The notes below the pieces were generated by a model. That model made no database searches and had not been told where the DNA came from. It worked only from the letters and a program-made list of their open reading frames with translations. From Uranotaenia lowii (Eukaryota; Arthropoda; Insecta; Diptera; Culicidae), in NCBI RefSeq assembly GCF_029784155.1, contig NC_073692.1, positions 366,835,160 through 366,899,159 on the forward strand: a stretch of 64,000 bases of DNA, written 5' to 3'. Numbering within the stretch: position 1 is the stretch's first letter; each line of letters begins with the position of its first letter. This document shows positions 12,640 to 48,783 of this stretch, in pieces. The position numbers and the translations under genes are program-made.

Positions 12640-13720
12640 GTTTCGCTTTCAACTTTGAATATGTCATGAACAGTTTGTATGAAAGCCGATTGCCAAGCTA
12701 TTTCTAGATGCACTTCCGAATTCATTGTTTAGTAACAATTGCAAAAATATTGGACGATCACTTTTTCTGCGTCTGCTGCTAAATTTGAAATCAGAAATCA
12801 ATTGACCGTGCCAAAAAATCCTCGTGTATAAATATCGACTCGATCGTCACATAACTACGTAATTATAGCCAAAAAAGTTAAACCCCTTTCGAAGGCCTCT
12901 TATACAATCTTTGAAATCTGAAATTCATTGTCCTTCCCTGAAAACTCCCGTGTGCATATTTTCAAAGCAATCCAATGCATAATAACGTCAATATTGCTAA
13001 AAACAGTGAAAAATTAGTCAATATGGACGACCCCTTTTGTCGAGCCCTGGCAAAACATTTGACATCTGAAATCCCGTCCCCGAAAACTACCGCGTGCAAA
13101 TTTTCATCTCAATCCGATGCCAAATAACGACGATATTGCAAAAATATTGAAAGGTTAATAAGGACGACCCCCTTTGCCGGCCCCTTACACTGAATTTAAT
13201 TCCTGAAATTCATTGCTCGTCTCTTTAAACACTCGTGTGCCAATTTTCATCTGAATCCGATGTGCATTCACAGTGATTAGTTAATATGGATGACCCCTGT
13301 TTTTAATTTGGATAAGTGAAATTAATTGTTTGTCCCTAATAACTCCTATGTGAAAATTTTCATTCCAATCCGATGCAAAATAACGTCAATATAACTAATA
13401 TATTGAAAAGTTAATAAGGACGACCTCTTTTGCTGGCCCTTTACACTGAACTTGATACCTAAAATCAATTGCACGTCACTCAAAACTATCGTGTAACAAT
13501 TTTCATCTAAATACGACGAATAATAACGTCAATATCGCAAAAACAGCGAACAATTCATATGGACGACCCCTTTGGCTGACCCCTTACACAAAATTTGTCA
13601 TCTGAAATCGATTGCTCGTCTTTCAAAACACTCGTGTGCAAATTTTCAACACAATCCGACGAAAAGTAACGTCAATATCGCGAAAACAATATTTGTCTTG
13701 TATGCCGACCTCCTTCCGAA
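12640..13720 (+). repeat. Diverged tandem array, about 120-140 bp period, six to seven units
   Basis: The motif GGACGACCCCTTT (or close variants) recurs near 12886, 13024, 13164, 13287, 13418, 13558 and 13700. Each time it comes with TTTTCATCxxAATCCGA and AACGTCAATATxGC at similar offsets. Units differ by substitutions and small indels, and no reading frame spans them. It ends shortly before the mariner at 13815. Confidence 0.8.
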
Positions 13721-13814: not shown

Positions 13815-15095
13815 AAGGGTGTTACGGTCAAAATTTGGTCAATATCACCTTGACGTATTTCTTTCAATTTTGCATTTAAAAAACCTGAACACCCCTCATT
13901 TTGAAGGTGTATGTGTTGCTCCTATTTTGATTTGGGAATTCACTTTTCAGTTGTCAAAATGCCATCCAAGGAAGAAGAGCAGCGTATCAAAATTTTGCTC
14001 ACGCATCGCGAAAATCCGAGCTACTCGCACGCAAAATCGTTAAAAGTTGCCAAATCAACCGTTACAAATGTAATTCAAGTGTTTGGGGAACGTTTGTCGA
14101 CAGCCAGGAAGTCTGGATCGGGGGGAAATCGAAAACCGGAAGCCACTGAGACAACAAAGAGAGTTGCCGGTAGTTTCAAGCGAAGCCCTAACCTCTCTCT
14201 CTGATATGCCGCAAATAAGCTGGGTGTATCGTCTACAACCGTGCATCAAGCCGAAAAACGAGCTGGACTATCGACTTACAAGAAGGTAGTGACTCCAAAT
14301 CGCGATGATAAACAAAATACGACGGCCAAAGCGCGATCCCGGATGTTGTACACGACGATGCTGACGAAGTTTGACTGCGTGGTAATGGACGAGGAAACCC
14401 ACGTCAAAGCCGACTACAAGCAGCTTCCGGGGCAGAAGTTTTATACGGCAAAAGGAAGGGGAAAGGTTGCAGATATTTTCAAGCACATGAAACTGTCAAA
14501 GTTCGCGAAGAAATATCTGGTTTGGCAAGCCATCTGTACCTGTGGCTTGAAAAGCAGCATTTTCATAGCTTCCGGGACTGTCAACCAAGAAATTTACGTG
14601 AAAGAGTGTTTGAATAAACGTCTTCTGCCTTTCCTGAAGAAACACGGTTGTTTCGTACCATTTTGGCCAGATTTGGCATCTTGCCATTACGGTAAAAAGG
14701 CCATGGAGGGGTACGCCGCCAACAACGTGCAGGTGGTTCCCAAGGACAAGAACCCTCCCAACACGCCAGAGCTTCGCCCAATTGAGATATACTGGGCTAT
14801 TGTCAAGCGGAACCTAAAGAAGACCAAAAAAACTGCTAAGGACGAGCAGAAGTTCAAGGCAAAATGGCTTCCGCGGCGAAGAAGGTGGACAAGGTCGCTG
14901 TACAAAATCTGATGGCAGGGATTAAGCGTAAGGCCCGGTAATTCGGATTTGGAAAAAGGGAAGCCTAACTGACTATTTTTCCTGAATTTTATACTAATTA
15001 AACTTGAAAAAGAAATTTAATTTGATTTGTTAAATGAACGATTTCACCGATTTACACGCGTTTTCCCTTGACCAAATTTTAACCGTATCACCCTT
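13815..15095 (+). mobile_element. DD37E mariner-like transposon (ITmD37E type)
   Basis: 1281 bp flanked by TA (13813-13814, 15096-15097). The roughly 28-bp terminal inverted repeats begin AAGGGTGTTACGGTCAAAAT on the left and, reversed, AAGGGTGATACGGTTAAAAT on the right. The transposase lies inside in the plus orientation. Size, TA target and TIRs fit the IS630-Tc1-mariner superfamily. The DD37E catalytic spacing points to the ITmD37E group known from mosquitoes. Confidence 0.9.
13959..14941 (+). pseudogene. DD37E transposase, frameshifted
   Basis: The natural start is the ATG at 13959 (MPSKEEEQRIKILLTHRENP). The N-terminal helix-turn-helix part reads to about 14200, then needs at least two frame changes near 14190-14245 to continue as HQAEKRAGLSTYKKVVTPN. 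The catalytic core contains VVMDEETHVKAD (first Asp), WPDLASCHY (second Asp) and ELRPIEIYW (Glu). The second Asp and Glu are separated by 37 residues, i.e. DD37E. A further frame change near the end would be needed to reach the expected C-terminus (VQNLMAGIKRKAR, stop at 14939-14941). Core residues are intact, but the gene as it stands is dead. Confidence 0.88.
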
Positions 15096-28559: not shown

Positions 28560-28918
28560 GAATGAACATTGTAGGAGTTTTTTAGTTTTTTTCTATGAAT
28601 TTTGTATGGGAGCTCCCCGTTTCAAAAGCAAGAAACATCATTAGGGACAATGAATCAAACTCTCGTGTCAAATTGTGCTTCTGCACCCAGTTTCATGAAA
28701 ATCATATGTAAATCGTTTGAGTTATGTCATACTTCCAGTTGAATTTGTATTAGAGCCCCCTTTCTATAACATCTGATGGTTTTGAACCTATTCAATTTAA
28801 TTTCAATTTCAATTTTGTTTATTTAGAGAGGATATTAACCAACATGGTCATTCTTCCTCTTGCGGTTTTGAAACTATAATACAAACAATCCTCGGCCCAA
28901 AACAACCTTCCTTGTGTA
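28560..28918. other. Non-coding DNA, nothing recognised
   Basis: AT-rich; no ORF or repeat ends of note. Confidence 0.5.
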
Positions 28919-29260
28919 AATGAATAAGTGAGTAAGTGATTAAGTTAGTAAGTGAGTAAGTGAGTAAGCGAGTAAGTGAGTAAGTGAGTAAGAGAATAAG
29001 CGAATAAGCAAGTTAGTGAGTAAGTGAGCAAGCGAGTAAGTAAGTCAGAAAGCGAGAAAATGAGTAAATGAGTAGTAACAGAGTAAGTAAATAAGTTAGT
29101 AAGTGAGTAAACTTCCAATTGATTCAGTAAGCAAGCGAGTAAGTGAGTGTTTGATAAAATAAATAAGTGAGTAGGTGAGTAAGTGAGTAGCGAGTAAGTG
29201 AGTAAGTGAGTTAGTGAGCTAGTGAGTTAGTGATGCAAGTTTAAAAGTGAGTGCAAGTGA
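28919..29260 (+). repeat. GAGTAAGT-type microsatellite
   Basis: Imperfect tandem GAGTAAGT/GAGTAAGC units, most regular at 28925-29060 and 29150-29230. The same words resume at 29984-30000 after the MITE, so the array was continuous before that insertion. Confidence 0.9.
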
Positions 29261-33539: not shown

Positions 33540-34389
33540 ATTTCTTTACAGAAAAAGCTTACAGAATCTTTACAAAAAAAACTCCCGCTTCTTTTGGTGA
33601 ATTTTCGAGGATCAAAAAATTAAAAAAATCAACGCTCGCGATTTGTCTCCCAACACAACCCCGCCTCCACTGCTCCAGTTAAAATTCATCTGGACTCGAT
33701 GATTGAACCATACTTTTGAAAAATTTGGTGGTTCATGGTAGACGAAGAAATTGCGGAAGCAGATTAATACAGAACTGAGGCCTTCAAATCACGTTTTACC
33801 GATTGACTGTGTGATTTTGTGATCTTCACTATATTGTGCTCAAAATAAGCAGATGACAGGGGGCCGCCCTAAATTCATGATTGTTATTTTAACCATTGCA
33901 CAGTGGGAATATTTGGACCTTAAATACCGATGAATTCCAAGCCGCCGTGGTTTAAGGACCTGAAATAATACGTATGTTTTGTGCATTGTTTCAGGAGTTT
34001 AAATCTGTCCCCAGATTTGGCCGGAGACATCTGAGTGCAGTGTTTTTTGCTCTTAAAGGAATCATTTTGAGCAATAATAATAATAACTCAGCAAATTTTT
34101 TTTCGGGAAGCTTTGTGATGTGAAAGTTTTATAAAGATTGATGAAGTGTTACTAGAGTTACTAGTCACATATATGATCACTCTATTAAAAATAAATACAC
34201 TATTTTGATTTTGAACAAACTTTTTGGAAAGGCTAACGAATGTATGCACAATTGAATATCGTTTGCATACATCGTTCGATTTAAAATAAATTTTGAGCGT
34301 TGTTGAACGCATTCTGGCCCTTTAATATGATTTCCATTTTGTTAAAATCGATCAACATTAAAGTGAGATATAAAGCAATTACATACACC
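33540..34389. other. Non-coding DNA left of the foldback element
   Basis: No gene recognised. Confidence 0.5.
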
Positions 34390-34609
34390 AAGGTTTTTTT
34401 AACATGGTTTTTTACGCGGTTTTTTTACACGGCTTTTTTTACACGGATTTTTTTACACGGATTTCGCGAATTAACACGGTTTTTGAGAGAAAATATTCCC
34501 TTTTCCCCTTTTTTTTTTTTTTTTGTTTTCCTTTGAAAAGGAAATAAGTCCTTTTCAAAGGAAAACACTTAGAATCTTTTGAAAGTTGGGGAAATCTTAG
34601 CTCTGAGAC

Positions 34610-34985
34610 TAAGAACATGATACATGAGACCTGAGACCTGGGACCTGAAACCTGAGACCTGAGACCTGGGACCTGAGACCTGAGACATGAGACCTGAGAC
34701 CTGAGACAAGAGACATGAAACATTAGAAATTAGACATGAGACCTGAGACCTGAGACCCAAGACCTGAGAACTGGAACCTGAGACAAGGGATATTAGACTT
34801 GAGACCTCAGCATGAGAAATTAGAACTGAGGCATGAGACAAGAACCATGAAACATGAGACTTTAGACCTGAGACATGAGACATGAGACATGAGGCATGAG
34901 ACAAAAGACATAAGACATGAGACCTGAAACATGAGACCTGAGACCTGAGACATGAGACTTTGGACCTGAGACCAGAGACAAGCTA
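34610..34985 (-). repeat. GAGACCTGA tandem array, left arm
   Basis: Dozens of imperfect GAGACCTGA / GAGACATGA units. Overlapping ORFs here (SQVSGLRSQVSG-type reading) are a product of the repeat, not genes. Confidence 0.95.
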
Positions 34986-35199
34986 CTAATGTTAGTACCG
35001 CGAGAAAATAGTTTTGCTCCGATTTCAACTTTCGACCAGTCTTCACGAAAACATGTACCGAGTTCAACTTGAGAGCGGAAATTCAGGCGCATGTTTTCTC
35101 TGAACTTGCACACAAACTTGTAGGGTATTTCGGGGGAATATGCACCTGCTAAGGGAAATGACCGAGTATGCTGAATACGTAAGCTGAACACCCGAATAA

Positions 35200-37689
35200 A
35201 TTGCAACATGTGCTTCGTATTTCTATCTTCTACTCATATTCTGTCAAAAATATTACTTTTTATGGTAAAAACTATGAAAATATTCGATTTTTTACAAACG
35301 CCTTTAAAAGCAACCTTTGAAACCATTGGATGTTAAACGCCCCAGTGTAGGCAAATGATGCTCCAAAACATTGGATCAAAACGACTCGAAAACAACACAA
35401 TATTCACAGTGAAAATAAATTAATTCTTTTATTTGATTCAGAAAAAAGTGCAAAAAATATTTTTTTTCCAAGTTTATCTACACATAAAAACAAATGGTTT
35501 GTTAACATTTCCCAATGAAAAAATTAAATATTTTGAAATTCTTGACTTTATTTTGAACTGTGTCAGTTTCAACCAAATTTTTCTGCTGCTTTTGGCGACA
35601 AATTTAGTGAACCGATTCGATTTTCTGTGCACGTTTTTTACTCAAAATCGGTCGAAAGTTATAATTATTATGCATCCTAATGATAATTAAGGACTAAGCA
35701 AAGAAGAAGATCGATACATCTTTTCGATAATCGGTCTGTATTCATGGAAAACTGCACTTCAAAATTTAGAATAAAACACGTGGTTTTGTTTACATCTTAC
35801 CGAACAGCACCTTGAGAGGAGGGCGATTTGTCCATAAATTCATGGGGGCATTTTGATCGGATATCTAAAATTTAATATGTCTTTAGTTTACCATAAAACA
35901 ACAATTTACCACAGTTTTTCATCAATTGATAATTCAAATAACAAAATTTAACAAAATATAGTTGCTGTCGTTTTACCCCGCATGGGCGTTATGGACAGAA
36001 GTACCCTACTTGGGTTTAGCTCGAACCTGAACTCGAGCACATTTATTGTACCCGAGTGCGCGCCCCGATGTCCCTACCCTGGTTCGCTTCGGGTTCGTAC
36101 CGAGTTTTGTACTCATAGTGGCTGGCTGAACTGAGATTGAATGTGTCTACCTGTGTATGCCTGGGAGTTGAATGCGGTATGAATTAATTTCTTCAGTTAG
36201 TTTTTCTATCATTTGTGCGTATGTTATTCAATTTCACTACTGTTTTTTGAGCATTTTTGGAGTTATGTATGGGGTGTTAAAACCGACACATATATATGGT
36301 TGGTTTTTGAAAATTATCGATGAAATTTTTTTGTCTTCTGGCCAAAAAACAGAATAAAAAATTTGGCCGAAAATTTGTTTGTTTGAAACTAGATAGGTAG
36401 TTCCCAAATATTCCCAAATATTTCATAAAATCACCGGTTGATGATTTTATGAAACATTTGGGAATTGCCATTCCAACTCTCGCTCCGCAAACCTCATGAA
36501 ACAATGTTTATATTTATGAGGCATTAAAAAATGCAAACATAAAATCGATAAATAATCGCATGGCGAGTAGAAAACATGTAAAATTTTGCATAATTTGAAT
36601 GATTAAAAATTATAAAAAAGATCCAATTGACACAAATGAAAAAACGGTCAAATATTCAAAATGTCAACAATAACAAAAATATAAAAAATGGCTTTAGTGA
36701 CAAAAAAGAAGAAAATGACAGAAATATCACAAATGGCAAAAATGAGCCCATGGTTAAATGGCAAAACCTTCTAAAGCTGTTCGAAAAACATCCGTTACAA
36801 GGAAATTTGAGTTGCAGTTTGATGGCGTTCCCAAAGCCGCAAATGTTATCCGATTTTTATGATATTATATTCATTGTGTAGATTATTTATTCAAGCTACT
36901 CAACATTTCAAAATTAAGTCGATATGTATTGCCAGCTTTTAAGAAACTGGTTCAGACAGAAAATAGTAAATATAAAAAAACAATTATATTTTCAAAATAC
37001 TTATGCCACTGATCTTATACCTTCTGACAGCTTTGCTGTATTTGAATGTTTCATTGATGTTTGGAATTGTCAAGAACACATCCATCCGACTGTGTTTAGA
37101 TATGTTGGAATCCAATGAAAGTTTTGACCGCTATTTCGGACTAGAAAAAATTCATACTTTAAAAGCGGCATCTAATTTTGGCTTTGCTTAGTTGTATTTC
37201 ATTTCTATATGAGCTGATTTTTTTAAATAAAATTTTAATTTTTTGTTGTTCATTTGATTATCGTTTCGAATGAACATACTTGATCTTATCATATTGACCC
37301 AAACAATTTTGAAGGGTTAGAAATGACAACAAATATCATAACTATGAAACTGGCAAAAATGGGAAAAAATAAAACTCATAATAATTTGGAAGATTCGTTG
37401 ATTAGATTTCATAGACTTTCCACTGGTAAGATGTTGAAAAAATTTAATACCTCATTTTATTGTACACCTGTCAAATTACAAATCACATATAATTTCTTTT
37501 ATTTGTTCTACAATTAATTCGTCATATGAATTATAAAAGCTCTGTTAATACCAGGACAATAAATTGTTTTACAATTGTTTTTCAGATAATCTATTTGTTT
37601 AATTGTTTTTTACACTATTACTTCAGAGAAAGATTATGTTCATCATTTTAGTCGTACATGAAATAATGTTTTTATAGTCTTTAAAACTT
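35200..37689. other. Interior of the foldback candidate, no gene recognised
   Basis: AT-rich. A 36000-36110 block rich in GAGTTCGAAC / GGTTCG words resembles 39340-39500. A hairpin-forming segment spans 36410-36468 (CCCAAATATTTCATAAAATCA facing TGATTTTATGAAACATTTGGG). No transposase-like frame is recognised. Confidence 0.45.
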
Positions 37690-37960
37690 CGTTTAAATGA
37701 CCTTTATTTTTAATGTGATATCGGGCTCTGAATCGGAGAATGAAATTTAAAAAAAAAACTCAGTAGAACAGTTTTTAAGTAATGCTCGAAATATGAAATT
37801 TTGAAAAATTTTTAAAAAGTAGGTACTTGTACTGAAATTCAAATATCTCTTTATGCATGACGTGAATTTGAAATCTCTTATTTGCATATTAAAGGTGATT
37901 AAATTTCCTATCGATCTTGCAAACTTTATATTTGAGTATGATTAACAGTATTGTTGATAT
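37690..37960 (+). repeat. Dispersed repeat family B, copy 3 (diverged)
   Basis: TTTTAATGTGATATCGGGCTCTGAAT, AATATCTC, TTTGAAATCTCTTxTxTGCATATT and GATTAACAGTATTGTTGAT parallel 33255-33510. Confidence 0.55.
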
Positions 37961-38079
37961 TAATGACTTAATGATAGAAAAATTTATAAAAACGGATTTT
38001 TATAGAGAAAATTTTGTTTCAGCTTTAGTTTCAGACTCGAAGGTAATATGTTAAAAATCCGATTTTCTTTTGTACTTAA

Positions 38080-39290
38080 ATATCAGTTCAAAACAAAGAT
38101 TTCAAGTGGTTGTTTATCAAAATCGTTTGAAAATTTGCATTTTTGAATAATTTTGCGAACCACGGTGTACTTATCATAGTGTAGGAAGAATAAAATATAG
38201 TAAATCTCACTCGCTCCAAGTCAAAGTTGGGTATTAGTGTACCAGAAGGTCACATGCCAAATTTCAGATTGATCTGACCATGGGGAGGGCTACTTGAGTC
38301 TCAAAAGTGAATAGGATTTTTAGGTATTTTGCTCGGGAGGAACAAAAAATACTGGTTTTTCATTCATAACTTTTTTCTTCACTGGCCGGTTGCTTTTTAT
38401 GAATAATTTTCTTAAAGCCTGAATTTAGAAAAATATTTCACTCGAAGACTGCAATCCGATTGGACTTAAAACAAAAATGTTATTGCGATGGTAACATTCT
38501 AATATTGTTTGTTTTATACGGAACTTGAATGTTGATATAAAACAAAGATTTTAAGTTCTTATTTATCAAAATCGGTTGAAAGTGGTAGAAGTTATGGTCA
38601 AGGTTGCCGAAATCACAGAATCTATAATTTTACAGAATTTTGAGCATAAATATTTTTGTCACAGATTCTATGTCATGGAACAAAATATTCACAGATTTTT
38701 GAAATTTTGTAGGCTTTTCCAAACTAATAAATTTTCATACCAATACTTACTTTGGATTTCTGAATCAAATTAACGAAAATGTTATAAAATTAACACTGTA
38801 TATACAGCGTAATTGTAATATTGTAAAAATAAGCATATGGGAAATGTTTTTCAGTGAAAATCGTATTAAAACATCACAGAACCTTGTCACAGAATTTTGG
38901 AGCCAAATCAAAGAAATATAGAACTTTTTTTTTTCAAAAACACACAGTTTCTCCGGTTATGGTTACTTTACGTAAGTAATATTAGCATTGGAAGAATAAA
39001 ACATGGTAAATCTAATCAGCTCCAAGCTAAAATTAAACATTGCCTTACCAGAAGTTTACAAGCCTAATTAAGCAAAATCTAACCATCAGAAGGGGTTTCG
39101 ATTGAGCCTCAAGCGTGAATGGGATTACGAAATCCCATTCACGCTTGAGATTTTTCATTAATAACTTTTTTATCCCCTAGCCGATTGATTTTTTTAAATA
39201 ATTTTCTCTAAGCCTAAATGAAGACAAACATTTTACCCGAAGACAGCATCACGATTGGAATTGAAACAAAAAAGTTACCTAAGCTGCTCA
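38080..39290 (+). repeat. Partial direct duplication, about 800 bp apart
   Basis: 38188-38470 and 38990-39280 share GGAAGAATAAAAxATxGTAAATCT, GCTCCAAG, ACCAGAAG, GAGCCTCAA/GAGTCTCAA, CATTCATAACTTTTTT and the GAAGACxGCAxxxCGATTGGA phrase in order. They look like two diverged copies of one repeat. No coding content. Confidence 0.65.
39108..39149. repeat. Perfect 19-bp hairpin, 4-nt loop
   Basis: CTCAAGCGTGAATGGGATT (39108-39126) and its exact complement at 39131-39149 flank ACGA. The related copy near 38300-38330 has only the left half, so the palindrome arose here by a local inverted duplication. Confidence 0.9.
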
Positions 39291-39514
39291 AGCGCTTACA
39301 CTTTCTGCATTTTATTCCGTTTCCTGGATTCTGAACATGGATGCGCGCACACGGGTTCGCACCCGAGTTCGAACTTGCACCCTACACTTTGAGTGCGGTG
39401 AGTTTAAATGGGTGCGTGTTGAACTTGCACCTCAAAAGTTGTGTGCAAGTAAGTACAAAAACTTGCGTGCACTTCGCACCCAAGTTGTACCGTGAAGACT
39501 GCTTTCGACCGGTC

Positions 39515-39605
39515 AAGTGAAAGGGTTAGTGGTTAGCGTGGTAAGACGATAATCGCTGGTCCACTGATGGCATGGGTTCGATTCCCATCGCGGTACTGGG
39601 TGTTC
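39515..39605 (+). repeat. tRNA-related (SINE-like) sequence
   Basis: A perfect B-box GGTTCGATTCC lies in the stem context ATGGGTTCGATTCCCAT (about 39571-39587). A degenerate A-box-like TGGTTAGCGTGG lies about 40 bp upstream. The 5' flank CTTTCGACCGGTCAAGTGAAAGG (about 39503-39525) is the inverse of part of the 119-bp repeat. A functional tRNA cloverleaf is not evident, so a tRNA-derived repeat is likelier. Confidence 0.5.
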
Positions 39606-40299
39606 AATGTTAAGTTGATTGCACATAAAATTGAGGTAGTCAGAAAAATTATTGGTTTCACCAGTTTTTTAAATTTGCGATTTTTACCGCACTAAGAAAA
39701 AGGGCTAATTTGTTACAAACTTAATTTTTATTCAAAATCTTAAAAAACGTTTAAAAATTTATAGTTTTTGATGTATTTGTGATTTCGTAACGCATGAAGC
39801 ACCAATTGCAGTAATTTTTGGCTATGTTCGAATTAAATATTATATTTTTTAAATCAAAAATGTTTTTATAGAAAAAACATGAGTGTGATACAAACATTTA
39901 GGGGTAAAAATACTGCAACAATTTCTTCTAGCTGAATTCATAAAAATTCATGAGAGGATGGATAAAAATTTTGAAGTTATATTTTCATTACTTACAAATT
40001 TCAAAGAATGCGATGTTTGAAAACAATTTTTGAAAATTTGTAGTATCTTCTTCAAGTTTTCAAACAATCAAAGAACGCAAGGGCTCACAGCCACACCGGC
40101 TCTCTAGAATGATGATTTTACTCAACTTTCGGCTGGGTGGGTCCTGCAGTTTCTGCTTGCGCGTTATGATTTATTTTGCCAGTTATCAAAAAAAACATGA
40201 TACAAAATATAAAAAAACGCTTTATATACCATTCAATTCCCCGGAGTCTCAAGATTACCCTATGTCACCAATATCACCAAGAAGTCAATCCCTTTCACT

Positions 40300-40788
40300 T
40301 GACGAGTCGAAAGTTGAAATCGGAGCAAAACTAATTTCTCACGGTACTAGCACAAGTAGCTTGTACAAGCGAACTCGCGACACTATTTTTCGTCACCTAC
40401 AAGTGAAGCTCTTTCACTTCACACCGGTCTAAAGTTGAAATCGGAGCTAAACTAATTTCTACTGGTACTAAACCTAGTAGCTTAAACTAACGAACTAGCG
40501 ACACTATTTTTCGTCACCTACAAATGAAACCCTTTCGCAAGTTGAAATCGGAGCTAAACTAATTTCTCGTGATACTAACCCTAGTAGTTTGTACTAGCGA
40601 TCTCACGACACTATTTTTCGTCACTTTCAAGGGAAGCCCTTACACTTGACCGGTCGAAAGTTGAATTAGGAGCTAAACTAATTTCTCGCGGTACTAACCC
40701 TAGTAGCTTGTACTAGCGAAGTCGCTACACTATTTTTCGTCACCTACAAGTCAAACCCTTTCACTTGACCGGTCGAAAGTGGAAATCT
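40300..40788 (+). repeat. 119-bp tandem repeat, units 1-4 plus start of 5
   Basis: Units begin at about 40310, 40432, 40539, 40658 and 40777 with AAGTTGAAATCGGAGC. Each carries GCGGTACTAA, GTAGCTTGTACTAGCGAA, CACTATTTTTCGTCACC and CACTTGACCGGTCG. The fifth unit is cut by the insertion at 40789. Confidence 0.92.
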
Positions 40789-41437
40789 TCTTCTTCTTCT
40801 TCTTCTGACACCAACATGGCCAAAACTTGTATGCATCCTGGAAAATGAAAAACTTGCGTTCCTCATTTTTCTTTTCAACATAGTATCTGAGACATAGAAC
40901 ATGCATTGAAGATACTACTACGGCCAGGCCAACCATGTGATGATAAACGCAAAAGATTCAGGAACAAGGGAGGAATGAAGCGTGGAGTTCCCTGCCAAAC
41001 GCTTCATATGATTGTATATGGTTTTGGTGTTAAATTTAAAATAAAATATAAATAAATAAACGGATTAAAAATAATACAGAACGGGCTCACCAAATCAAAG
41101 GGAAACTTTAGTTACGGATGATTCAGGGCGCAAGAATAGCTTTACTGCGGCAATAATTTCTGGAAACTCGGCTTGACTGGATCAGGGGATGTTGGGGAAA
41201 CAGCTTGCTTTGCTTCTTCGCAGGAACCGAGGCTAACTAGTAAGTCTTCTTTAGGGTGGGCCACTATTCCAAAGTCCAGTCGGTTCCATTTTTCGGACTT
41301 AAGCAACAGCTACCAAAAAGCTTCCAATTCCGAATATTTCACATATAAATTCAAATTTCACATATAAAATTATCACAAATTGCAGTAAATTTTCATGTCA
41401 AAAAATAAACTGATCCGCTTTCTTCGCCCACAGCCTA
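40789..41437 (-). mobile_element. Retroposon-like insertion in the 119-bp array with (GAA)n tail
   Basis: The same stretch of about 20 bp, ending GAAAGTGGAAATC, precedes the insert (about 40768-40788) and follows it (about 41440-41460), after which the array unit continues. Both copies carry GTGG where other units have GTTG, so they derive from one target site. The insert starts with (TTC)n, i.e. a (GAA)n tail on the minus strand. The interior is not recognised. Confidence 0.7.
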
Positions 41438-41632
41438 CCTGACCGGTCGAAAGTGGAAATCGGAGCTAAACTTATTTTTCGCAGTACTAACCCTAGAAGC
41501 TTATACTAGCGAACTCGCGACACTGTTTTTCGTCACCTACAAGTCAATCCCTTTCACTAGAGGGGTCGCAAGTTGAAATCGGAGCTAAACTAATTTTTCG
41601 CGGTAATAACACTAGTAGCTTGTCTCAGGTCT
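41438..41632 (+). repeat. 119-bp tandem repeat, final units
   Basis: Completes unit 5 and adds a partial unit 6 (about 41570-41625) that runs into the TCAGGTCTC array at GTAGCTTGTCTCAGG. Confidence 0.9.
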
Positions 41633-42200
41633 AAAGTCTCAAGTCTTAGGTCTAATCTTTCATGGCTCTTGTCTCATGCCTCAGTTCTCATGTCTTATGT
41701 CTCATGTCTCAGGTCTCAGGTCTCAAGTCTCAGGTCTCAGGTCTCATGTCTCAGATCTCATGTCTAATTTCTAATGTTTCATGTCTCTTTTCTCAGGTCT
41801 CATATCTCATGTCCCATATCTCATGCCTCATGTCTCATGTCTCATGTCTCAGGTCTCAGATGTCATGTCTTAAGTCTCATGTCTCATGTCTCGGGTCTCA
41901 AGTCCCATGTCTCAGGTCTCAGGTCTCAGGTCTCAGGTCTCGTGTTTTATGTCTTAGGTTTCTTGTCTCAGGTCTCAGGTCTAATGTCCCATGTCTATGG
42001 TCTCATTCTTCAGGTCTCAGGTCTCATCTCTCAGATCTCAGGTCCCTGGACTCAGGTCTCAGGTGTCATGTCTAAAGTCTCAGGTCTCAGATCTTAGGTC
42101 TCATGTCTCTAGTCTACATTCTCAAGTCTCAGGTCTCAAGTCTCAAGTCTCAGGTCTCAGGTCTCAGGTCTCAGGTCTCAGGTCTCAGGTCTTAAGTGTC
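41632..42200 (+). repeat. TCAGGTCTC tandem array, right arm
   Basis: Imperfect TCAGGTCTC / TCATGTCTC units over about 570 bp, in inverted orientation to 34610-34985. ORFs across it are low-complexity artefacts. Confidence 0.95.
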
Positions 42201-42488
42201 AGAACTTCAGAGCTGTAGAATTTGAATGGTCTTTTTTTACGGTTTTCGGGAATTAATACGGTTTTTTTTGCACGATTTTTTTACGCGGTACGTTCATCAG
42301 TGTAAAAAAAACCTTACTGTATTTCACATAATCTTCATAGGGGTAAAAAGGGGCAAGAAAGATCGCTTCTTAGGAGCTCCACCCTTGTAAATGGTTCCTT
42401 TCAAATGATTTTAAGTTTTAAACAAACGTTTCAACTCGTTTTATAATATTGCAATGACTTAATATTTCATGTTGTGAAGACATATTAA

Positions 42489-45833: not shown

Positions 45834-47579
45834 CACTCAGAAAAATACTATTATATATACCATAAGATTCTCTTATGAAGTGGCGCCATAAGAAAAATCT
45901 ATGAAATTCCTAAGATTGTCTTATGAAGCGAATGAATTCTTCAGATGAACACCTGCTTCAATCAATGAGAGGTTGTTGCTTTTCATAAGAGGGTCTTATG
46001 GAAATGAAAATTTTACGTTTGAAGGGAAAATATCAAGATAGTTGATGTTAAAAACGATCAGTTTATTTTCTGGGTAATTTGTTGTTTGTTTACAATAACG
46101 GGTGGTATGAAAAAAAAAACCTAGTAATTGCTTTTGCTAAACTAAATCGAGCAGTCGAGCAGTCGCTTAAAGCAATTGCTTCGGTTGTTATGAATAAAGT
46201 TTTTTTTGACAGCTGTTTTCTCAGTCAGGAGCTTTTACTTTTAGAACAAACTAGTTTGGTATGAATAAAGCTCAAATCTGAAGCAATTGCTCGACAAATC
46301 TCCTAGCAATTGCTTTATTTTCTAAGCATGCTCGGTAGCAGACTTTTCCAATAAAAAAATCTTTAATAACGTCATGAATTTATCAAATTAGCAATATTTC
46401 ACTTCAAAACAATTCAAAAAGGCATTTTCAACATGGATGAAGAAAATTCGAAGTGATAACTCAACTTTTTCCATATTCCTGTCGTTGTATAAAATCATTC
46501 GTCTAAGATAAAATTAAACAAATCAATCAGTAAATATTTCAAATTAAAAAAAAATCCGGCTATAGTGGAAGAATTCCCAATTGGCTCAAAGTAAGAAATA
46601 AATTGTAATAATTTGAAATATTATACAGATCTATCATTTTTATATAATTTTGTTATAATCCTAAGATTTAAAAAAAATCTAAATTAAAATGCGCGCCTAT
46701 TGCTATTTTTTTATACATCGGATTATCCCGATCCGAATACATGTGGAAGAGCTTATGATAAATATTAAAGTAAGGCAATTTTTTGTTTGACAATATTCGA
46801 ATATGTTTTCATTTTTCTTTAAACATCGACATACTAGCACGCATTTACCAAAAAAATTCCGGTCGTTCTTACACCCACCAACCGCTTCGTCGACTTCAAG
46901 GCTACTTTAGCCATACTTTTCAATTTTCTGATCGTCTTCTTTCATTTTACTTTAGAAAACTTCAGATTCTGCTGGTTGGATAGCTCTATTTTTCGAAGCA
47001 AAAGCTATGTTCTAAAACTTTAGTACACATCCGCTAAGCAAATGTTTATTCATATCAAACTAAGAAAATGCTTTGGACATTTGCTTTGATTGATTTCGAG
47101 CTAAGTAAAAGCTTTCGAAGCAATTGCTAAATCTTATTCATACCACTAAACATCATGATCACCATATCACATTGCACATCAAGGCACGGTTCCAACAGTC
47201 ATTCTGCCGCACCCGGTCCATTGAACTTATCCTTTTCGCCGGTCAACATGCTGAAAAGTAAACATAAAAATATGTGTTTACGTTAACAAATAATTTGAAC
47301 GTTCACAAAAAATAAACTTACCATGTAGAATAACAAAATCACTTTCAACTTTGAAAAAAACTGATGGCTCCACAACTGGTTAGTGCTTGGTACAACGACA
47401 AGAAAATGACTGAATGTGTTCATTATTTTTTCACAATGTCGCTTCTTCTATTTTTCATAAGAACTTCGTATGAATATTGAAAGAATTCCATAAGACTCTT
47501 ATGAAAAATTAGTTTGGACGCAAAAAAGTGGTTCATAAGATGTATCTTATGAAATTTATAATAAGATTTCCTCTGAGTG
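45834..47579. mobile_element. TA-flanked TIR element with CACTCAGA ends, carrying a nested element
   Basis: The ends are CACTCAGAAAAAT and, reversed, CACTCAGAGGAAAT, flanked by TA (45832-45833, 47580-47581). Subterminal CATAAGA/TCTTATG words occur many times at both ends (45861-46000, 47450-47570). No transposase is recognised. A separate repeat occupies 46102-47146. Confidence 0.65.
46102..47146. mobile_element. Nested TIR element rich in AGCAATTGCTT
   Basis: The ends read GTGGTATGAA and, reversed, GTGGTATGAATAAG, each followed within 25 bp by AATTGCTT. AGCAATTGCTT-type palindromes recur inside both ends (46130-46320, 47115-47130). The target duplication is not evident, so the ends are approximate. 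Non-coding. Confidence 0.6.
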
Positions 47580-47581
47580 TA

Positions 47582-48783
47582 GTATTTTTACCCCTAAATG
47601 TATGCAGCATCCTCATGCTTTTTCTCTAAAAACATTTTTGCCAGAAAAAATGGAAAATTTAATTCAATCAAAACCAAAACTGACTGAAATTGGTGCTTTA
47701 TGCAATATTTCATCAAAAATATGTTAAAAGTTATCAATTTTCAAAAGGTTTTCATTTGATTTTCCATTAAAAACAAAATTTTATGCAAATTTACCCTTTC
47801 TTTGTAGGGTGAAAATCGCATGTTTTTCTAAATTTAAAAATAACTTTCGAAACCAATAATTTTTCTGATTACGTCTATTTGATGTTCCATTAACTTTAAA
47901 ACTTTTTATGTGAAAGCGGTATGATTATATGTGGACGTTAAATTTCTAGAATCCATTGAAGTTGAAAAGCGTTGCATGATGCCCCAGTTGACAGTACGAA
48001 TCATCCACGCGTTTTTTTTTTTTTTTTCAAACCACGTTAGTACACTGGTCACAAACACGGATGTAGGTAGGTGTACTTTTGTAATAAAGTGCACTCACGT
48101 CTGCATTCAAAATCTGACTAGCAGACTTTTTTTCCAAAAATTCTCTAAAAAAGAATTTGATATTTTTTTAACATTCAAAAATAGTAAAAAAAAGAGTTTT
48201 GAATCAAAACTATTTCGATTTTTGAAATGTGAAACAAATTCCACCGACAAAATAAAAGTGAAACAATCTTTAGTGAATTCGGCTACCTAAATTGGGATTT
48301 TTTCTCTTCTACGGTAAAAGGACTATAATTGATACAAAAAAAGAGTTGAAATATTTCGGTTATTTGTAGTACAACTTTAACAATTTTTTTTTAAATATAG
48401 CTACGAGACAGGTTGAAGTGTGTAAAAACTACAACCGAAAGTTACGCTCCTTAGCCCCTGTGGTTATGCAATTTTGAAACAAATTTCGGACATTTTTTTG
48501 TCGGCAAAAAAGTTTTTCGTTGGAAAAAAATCCCTTATAATCATTAAACTAAGCTTCTGTGAATTTTCAGAAAAAAAATAGAATTTTATGAAGGATTAAT
48601 CACCGTAATTTATATTTGTGGATGTAATTTATCGGCCTAGCGGTGAAAAGTCATGTCCTTTTTAGTAGGGACATCTGAAGATTATGAAGTATTTATATAG
48701 GTGGATAGAAGGTTAGATGAAAATGAAAGATGTTGAAAATGAGCGGGTAGAATTTATTTAGAAGCTTATCATCACATATCAAA
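47582..48783. other. Intronic AT-rich DNA
   Basis: Nothing supported as a gene; poly-T and A-rich runs. Confidence 0.5.

What the first reader, a model, noticed from the sequence alone, without database searches (positions are those of the whole stretch)
34390..42315. Mirror-image compound ends suggest a 7.9-kb foldback transposon
The sequence shows three different repeat blocks (AAGGTTTTTTT/ACACGG, GAGACCTGA array, 119-bp repeat) in the same order inward from both ends, in opposite orientations, with the same junction AGTAGCTTGTCTC. Inverted termini made of short tandem repeats are known for Drosophila FB foldback elements. A family with a 9-bp array plus a 119-bp satellite-like module may be undescribed, and could be a source of the satellite.
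Basis: partly seen in the sequence, partly recalled or inferred. Interest (0 to 1): 0.75.

Follow-up and report, generated by a model that had tools for sequence, protein, structure and literature searches.

The report
TA-targeting foldback transposon with array arms
The mirrored repeats are the two arms of one copy of a common non-coding jumping element in an insect-like genome; it is about 2.8 kb long, split here by two younger insertions, and is a variant of the known foldback transposons.

Summary
The mirror structure is real and is a transposable element, but not a 7.9-kb one and probably no FB relative. The window copy runs 34386-42319 between TA dinucleotides. Two nested insertions (35037-39501, hAT-like; 40788-41440) inflate a ~2.8-kb element; an uninterrupted, collinear copy elsewhere is 2,982 bp. 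The right-end pattern (up to 3 mismatches) occurs 559 times in the genome, control 0. Full plan: tip, (TTTTTTTACACGG)n block, 7-bp array, 119-bp array, interior, then 119-bp and 7-bp arrays inverted; shorter copies lack modules, and 2 of 11 complete fetched copies are one-armed. The outer block is not mirrored: it is direct at both ends, only the ~20-bp tip is inverted. TA flanks 11 of 12 complete copies; unoccupied paralogous sites show no longer duplication. This argues against FB/Mutator (8-10 bp) and Galileo/P and points to a Tc1/mariner-type transposase acting in trans; none was found. A copy's own arms are no more alike than arms of different copies, so the mirrored plan is probably inherited. 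No sign that the 119-bp unit seeds a homogenised satellite. A new family of a known architectural kind (closest: Tetris).

The parts
34384..34385 (.). TA target-site copy, left
   Evidence: TA on both sides in 11 of 12 complete copies examined (window row there cut one base off and corrected; exception L024, right side CA). Complete copies were picked with a tip pattern that includes TA (up to 2 substitutions)
34386..34505 (+). left tip CACCAAGGTTTTTTT and outer block of ~13-14-bp TTTTTTTACACGG repeats
   Evidence: tip pattern in 88 exact places of the genome
34506..34544 (+). T-run and first half of a short palindrome (34525-34566); in many of the scored copies the query jumps from about 119 to about 161, so this stretch is missing there
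   Evidence: query ranges
34545..34614 (+). sub-terminal stretch shared by copies
34591..34982 (+). left GAGACCT 7-bp array
34978..35036 (-). left 119-bp-type repeat, first part (interrupted); ends with the left target copy CTTTCGAC 35029-35036
35037..39501 (.). nested 4,465-bp insertion, hAT-like: 11-bp perfect TIR CAGTCTTCACG, 8-bp TSD CTTTCGAC; no Pfam match above cut-off in six frames
39502..39526 (-). left 119-bp-type repeat, continuation after the insertion (39502-39509 is the right target copy)
   Evidence: joined flanks extend the alignment to a right-arm unit from 75 to 90 columns
39527..40277 (+). non-coding interior module; homologous stretches lie inside other copies but also outside the family (e.g. 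window 47896-47578)
   Evidence: inside; outside; ARAGORN and Rfam negative
40278..40787 (+). right 119-bp array (about 4 units)
40788..41440 (.). nested 653-bp insertion beginning with (TTC)n, flanked by a 21-bp direct repeat (retroposon-like; it lies inside a tandem array, so the repeat is weaker proof)
41441..41623 (+). right 119-bp array, remainder
41621..42206 (-). right 7-bp array (GTCTCAG on + strand)
42225..42319 (+). right outer block (direct orientation) and inverted tip ...CCTTACTG
42320..42321 (.). TA target-site copy, right

Best explanation
A non-autonomous, TA-targeting DNA transposon family with foldback architecture. Shown: many dispersed copies with the same two ends, TA on both sides, unoccupied sites without a longer duplication, a recurring module order, no recognised coding capacity in the window copy. 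Inferred: a transposase encoded elsewhere, most likely of the Tc1/mariner (IS630) type, binds the short inverted tips (perhaps also the repeated TTTTTTTACACGG motifs), cuts the element out and pastes it into TA. The long arms are carried passively; the number of 7-bp and 119-bp units changes by slippage or unequal exchange, giving copies from 0.6 to about 3 kb and one-armed derivatives. The mirrored plan most likely arose in an ancestor and was then copied.
For: Family: 34385-34600 finds 40 scored of 1616 candidates; left tip 88 exact places, reversed-pattern control 0; right end 559 places with up to 3 mismatches, control 0. Pairing: 18 of 31 left tips on C1 and on C2 up to 109.8 Mb face a listed right end 0.7-9.4 kb away, 13 of them at 1.8-3.5 kb (two of these 13 are the near-identical L057/L058); none back to back within 12 kb, 2 same-strand pairs (only 100 of 559 right ends were listed, all without mismatch). 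Modules: of 57 loci (L003-L061 less duplicates L032 and L058) 56 have the outer block, 53 a 7-bp array in its direction, 33 the 119-bp unit, 23 7-bp arrays in both directions (about 1.5 kb either side seen). 119-bp clusters: 9 of 39 show both strands and all 9 are minus-then-plus (40 of 870 candidates scored, 150 of 276 matches listed). TA: both flanks in 11 of 12 complete copies. Unoccupied sites: the site of the 2,982-bp copy matches L012 and L031 with a single TA; the site of L031 matches window 47599-48003, L051 and L090 without a gap at the junction. Inherited plan: a copy's own arms score 0.35 (0.41 without the one-armed L024 and L026), left against right arm of different copies 0.40, left against left 0.55.
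Against: No transposase was found: none of 148 DDE_3 (PF13358) hits on C1-C3 lies within 5 kb of 185 listed ends, and the Tc1 remnant inside L047 has relatives whose 29 other fetched loci show no outer-block match (8 of them have weak tip-like matches with up to 3 substitutions). Only best-scored candidates are seen, so this is a weak negative. Other TA-duplicating superfamilies (for example CMC/Mirage, recalled) are not excluded. Complete copies were chosen with a tip pattern that includes TA, and three mirrored loci (L007, L018, L023) were dropped because one tip did not fit. The unoccupied sites are diverged paralogous repeats, not alleles: at the L031 site the empty relatives read TT, and a further window stretch (39896-39610) has a 10-base gap; at the site of the 2,982-bp copy two window stretches read TG. 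Right arms of different copies are not specially alike (0.37), and in the window itself the two arms (0.56) are as alike as its left arm is to other left arms (0.54).
Confidence: 0.85

Rival explanations
1. A member of the FB/Mutator foldback group (FB, Tetris, or the mosquito Muta elements, which also have short subterminal tandem repeats), with the duplicated target overlooked.
For: Architecture is very like Tetris and Muta1 (passages).
Against: No 8-10-bp direct repeat is seen in the flanks of the complete copies (by eye); unoccupied sites show no longer duplication; in a scan around the window copy the 25 best-ranked direct repeats lie within the two direct outer arrays.
Confidence: 0.06
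2. Not a transposon but palindromic satellite clusters, duplicated with chromosome segments.
For: 119-bp and 7-bp arrays are tandem repeats; one 3.1-kb one-strand 119-bp cluster exists on C2 at 195.59 Mb (not examined further).
Against: Sharp left ends with different flanks in the 29 other loci; TA and unoccupied sites; dispersal over all three large contigs.
Confidence: 0.04
3. Each copy makes its second arm anew by inverted duplication (fold-back repair), so mirror symmetry is a local product, not an inherited plan.
For: One-armed copies exist (L024, L026); some copies have head-to-head 7-bp arrays of very different length; in the window the two arms are fairly alike (0.56); right arms of different copies are not specially alike (0.37). 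Odds raised from 0.08 to 0.12 after a recheck for these last two points.
Against: On average a copy's own arms (0.41 without one-armed copies) are no more alike than left and right arms of different copies (0.40), and left arms match other left arms better (0.55).
Confidence: 0.12

Closest known systems
Tetris of Drosophila virilis (PMC4079207; start of abstract in a listing, and passages)
   Same: Non-autonomous foldback; termini in modules with an outer flanking part and an inner tandem array; middle part without genes; variable array copy number; autonomous partner not found by its authors
   Different: TSD 8-10 bp and placed in Mutator by its authors; one array (~220 bp); forms long homogeneous satellite arrays (94% alike). 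Here TA, two arrays (7 and 119 bp), outer blocks in direct orientation, units no more alike within than between loci
Muta1/Muta5 Mutator-like elements of Aedes aegypti (PMC5225508; passages)
   Same: [quoted passage not shown] Muta1 called a type 2 foldback element by the authors; many non-autonomous copies
   Different: 8-9-bp TSD; repeats belong to the inverted termini; a coding partner exists
Tc4 of Caenorhabditis elegans (PMC11071193; passages)
   Same: Tc1/mariner-group element whose original description (title in the reference list) calls it fold-back
   Different: Duplicates TNA in CTNAG; tandem-array arms are not mentioned in the passages seen
Drosophila FB elements (recalled; mentioned in PMC4079207)
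   Same: Inverted termini of short tandem repeats
   Different: 9-bp TSD (recalled), Mutator group; no sequence kinship tested
Galileo (P superfamily; recalled, and passages)
   Same: Foldback-like, internal tandem repeats in termini that carry extra transposase sites
   Different: 7-bp TSD (recalled)

Membership tests
Foldback-type transposon (architecture class) | Long inverted arms built of tandem repeats, present in many mobile copies | tested here: met
   2 of 11 complete fetched copies are one-armed
FB / Mutator foldback (incl. Tetris) | 8-10-bp target duplication | tested here: not met
   only TA (paralogous unoccupied sites, not alleles)
FB / Mutator foldback (incl. Tetris) | MULE transposase in a partner with the same ends | not tested
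   MULE domains were not searched near the ends
Galileo / P superfamily | 7-bp target duplication | tested here: not met
Tc1/mariner (IS630) | TA target, duplicated | tested here: met
   11 of 12 complete copies, chosen with a TA-containing tip pattern; unoccupied sites L012 and L031 with one TA, others TG or TT
Tc1/mariner (IS630) | DDE/D transposase encoded by an element with the same tips | tested here: inconclusive
   none of 148 DDE_3 hits within 5 kb of 185 ends; first look had 8422 candidates, 150 scored
Tc4 | TNA duplication in CTNAG | tested here: not met
   TA, flanks show no CTNAG
hAT (nested insertion 35037-39501) | 8-bp target duplication and short TIR | tested here: met
hAT (nested insertion 35037-39501) | hAT transposase | tested here: not met
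   no Pfam match above cut-off in six frames, stops read as X; non-autonomous at best

The most novel reading that the evidence does not exclude
A Tc1/mariner-lineage transposase has amplified hundreds of copies of a gene-free element whose arms are two unrelated tandem arrays of different period (7 and 119 bp), with the terminal motif block repeated in the same direction at both ends; foldback architecture would thus have arisen independently outside the Mutator and P lineages, as a way to disperse satellite-like arrays.
Probability: 0.5. Interest if true: 0.5.

Novelty: new variant of a known kind. Interest (0 to 1): 0.4.

Why it matters
[quoted passage not shown] A TA-targeting family with hundreds of ends suggests that the same architecture can be built on a different transposition system, and it gives a natural series (0.6 to 3 kb, one-armed, 7-bp only, 7+119 bp) for studying how tandem arrays grow inside a mobile element. 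It also warns that mirrored satellite-like arrays in large insect genomes can be transposon arms.

Tried and rejected
A 7.9-kb element: rejected, two nested insertions. Full mirror symmetry including the ACACGG block: rejected (an earlier, looser comparison was no better than shuffles). A longer TSD around the window copy: the 25 best-ranked matches of 4-12 bp lie within the direct outer arrays. tRNA or SINE in the interior: motif by eye only; ARAGORN and Rfam negative (the two Rfam rows are far below their cut-offs). I first took the interior for the family's own; it sits inside 9 of 57 loci (L015, L016 inverted, L017, L020, L038, L048, L051, L053, L057) but related stretches also lie outside the family (window 47896-47578, flanks of L031, L014, L090), so it may be a captured dispersed repeat. 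An autonomous partner through the Tc1 remnant in L047: not supported. L061, which shares the tip but has another interior, shows no open frame over 81 aa in the 1.6 kb viewed. Relatives in viral contigs: three patterns, one hit (L001), a short GGTCTCA array in a prokaryote- or phage-like contig, unrelated. Translated 7-bp array against the protein set: 37 matches with E up to 0.001, mostly from short contigs, no informative names; not used. Literature: the listings of searches show no paper that I recognised as describing this family; Repbase, Dfam and TEfam were not available. The junction-pattern census and the copy check of the nested hAT-like insert did not complete.
Full report
Setting. 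The window is G000:C2:366835160-366899159 of an unnamed 1.08-Gb assembly with three large contigs among 2009. Its reading frames (retroelement proteins, P450-like exons, a Tc1-like gene) look like an insect, perhaps a culicine mosquito; these names are mine and no call identifies the species.

Observation. Self-comparison confirms inverted arms: 34591-35042 matches 42004-41559 at 76% over 454 columns (E 1.8e-92), and AGTAGCTTGTCTC occurs exactly once on each strand, at 41614 and 34975. The array unit is 7 bp (self-match 0.75 at lag 7 against 0.30 and 0.34 at lag 9). The 119-bp repeat occurs on the right at 40278-40787 and 41441-41623, and on the left as part of one interrupted unit. Only the tips are inverted: 19 of 24 letters, TA included.

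Nested insertions. Joining 35036 to 39510 (keeping one CTTTCGAC) lengthens the alignment with a right-arm 119-bp unit from 75 to 90 columns; the stretch between begins CAGTCTTCACG, ends with its perfect reverse complement and is flanked by an 8-bp repeat. That is the signature of a hAT element; no transposase was recognised in it. A second stretch, 40788-41440, lies between two copies of a 21-bp repeat inside the right 119-bp array. Without both, the element is 2,787 bp.

Family. Searching the genome with 34385-34600 gave 40 scored places of 1616 candidates. The left tip as a 24-base pattern occurs exactly 88 times, reversed control 0; the right end as a 33-base pattern with up to 3 mismatches 559 times, control 0. 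Of the 59 loci L003-L061 I dropped two duplicates (L032, L058); of the remaining 57, 56 have the outer block, 53 a 7-bp array in its direction, 33 the 119-bp unit, 23 7-bp arrays in both directions, and 11 match the interior, inside the element in 9 of them and outside in L014 and L031. Only about 1.5 kb on either side was seen, so absence means little. Layouts differ: 119-bp arrays followed by the interior (L038, L048, L053, L057); 119-bp arrays with no interior in the stretch seen (L036, L043, L045) or with inverted 119-bp units meeting directly (L037, L050); and 7-bp arrays alone meeting head to head (L035, L039, L041, L046, L049, L052). A complete copy in L063 is 2,982 bp, and the three pieces of the window copy (34384-35036, 39502-40787, 41441-42321) align to it in order. 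Eleven complete fetched copies measure 582-2,982 bp; 5 of them have 119-bp units (L006, L021, L031, L034 and the L063 copy), only the last has the interior, and 2 (L024, L026) are one-armed. Of 31 left tips in the stretch covered by the listed right ends, 18 face a right end at 0.7-9.4 kb, 13 of them at 1.8-3.5 kb, with no back-to-back pair within 12 kb and two same-strand pairs. Of 39 clusters of 119-bp hits, 9 contain both strands and all 9 run minus then plus (40 of 870 candidates scored, 150 of 276 matches listed).

Mobility and target. TA stands on both sides in 11 of 12 complete copies (the window row there was cut one base off and is corrected; the exception is L024). These copies were picked with a tip pattern that contains TA, up to 2 substitutions allowed, and L007, L018 and L023 were dropped because one tip did not fit. 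For the 2,982-bp copy, joined flanks with one TA align through the junction with repeats that lack the element: L012 reads TTCCA-TA-TGTGCAACATATAG where the filled site reads TTCCG-TA-[element]-TA-TATGCAACATATAG (with a 3-base gap just upstream); L031 also reads TA, two window stretches read TG. For the insertion in L031, window 47599-48003, L051 and L090 align without a gap at the junction but read TT, and window 39896-39610 has a 10-base gap. These are diverged paralogous repeats, not alleles. No longer duplication appears, so TA is the best-supported target.

Arms. Normalised scores: own two arms 0.35 (0.41 without the one-armed copies), left against right arm of different copies 0.40, left against left 0.55, right against right 0.37. 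Own arms are thus no more alike than arms of different copies, which speaks for an inherited plan; but the right arms give no support of their own, and in the window the two arms score 0.56. Full 119-bp units (99 from 25 loci) are as alike between loci (0.887) as between neighbours in one array (0.891) or between opposite arms (0.886): no sign of recent local homogenisation, in contrast to what is reported for Tetris TIR-220. The sub-terminal stretch is 96% alike at the median among 56 loci (alignments were trimmed locally and overlapping loci not removed, so this is an upper estimate).

Interior. Related stretches lie inside copies and also outside the family: window 47896-47578 (74%), the flanks of L031, L014 and L090. 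It may be a dispersed repeat captured by an ancestor. ARAGORN and Rfam find no tRNA in it.

Partner. No coding copy was found. The Tc1-like remnant in L047 has relatives whose 29 other fetched loci show no outer-block match; 8 of the 29 have weak tip-like matches with up to 3 substitutions, which I take for chance. Open DDE_3 genes are plentiful (150 scored of 8422 candidates), but none of 148 on C1-C3 lies within 5 kb of 185 listed ends. This does not exclude a partner.

Comparison. Architecture is closest to Tetris (PMC4079207, start of abstract and passages), and short subterminal tandem repeats are known in the Muta elements of Aedes aegypti (PMC5225508, passages); they duplicate 8-10 and 8-9 bp. 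Tc4 is a precedent for fold-back structure in the Tc1/mariner group but duplicates TNA (PMC11071193, passages). The present family fails the TSD test of the first two and of Galileo, and meets the TA test of Tc1/mariner, whose transposase remains to be found. I rate it a new variant of a known kind.

Noticed in passing
window 35037-39501: A 4,465-bp hAT-like non-coding insertion (11-bp TIR, 8-bp TSD) inside the left arm; its copy number was asked for but not answered.
   Followed up: partly
window 40788-41440: A 653-bp insertion starting with (TTC)n and flanked by a 21-bp direct repeat, possibly a truncated retroposon.
   Followed up: partly
window 34525-34566: A perfect 18-bp-armed palindrome (GTTTTCCTTTGAAAAGGA, 6-base loop) after a T-run; in many of the scored copies the T-run and the first arm are missing.
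   Followed up: partly
window 47578-47896 (- strand): A 74% copy of part of the element's interior, standing outside any element.
   Followed up: partly
window 28916-29233: Another degenerate short array (8-bp GTAAGTGA, about 40 copies); no inverted partner in the window at E 1e-5.
   Followed up: partly
window 13349-13688 and 13905-14912: A 143-bp tandem repeat just upstream of a Tc1-like transposase reading frame interrupted by a stop.
   Followed up: no
L057 and L058 (G000:C2 87.70 and 87.96 Mb): Two copies with near-identical arms and the same 20-bp left flank 255 kb apart: local duplication or a haplotype duplicate in the assembly.
   Followed up: no
G000:C2:195594266-195597349: A 3.1-kb one-strand cluster of 119-bp units, the longest in the listing; could be a longer satellite-like array.
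   Followed up: no
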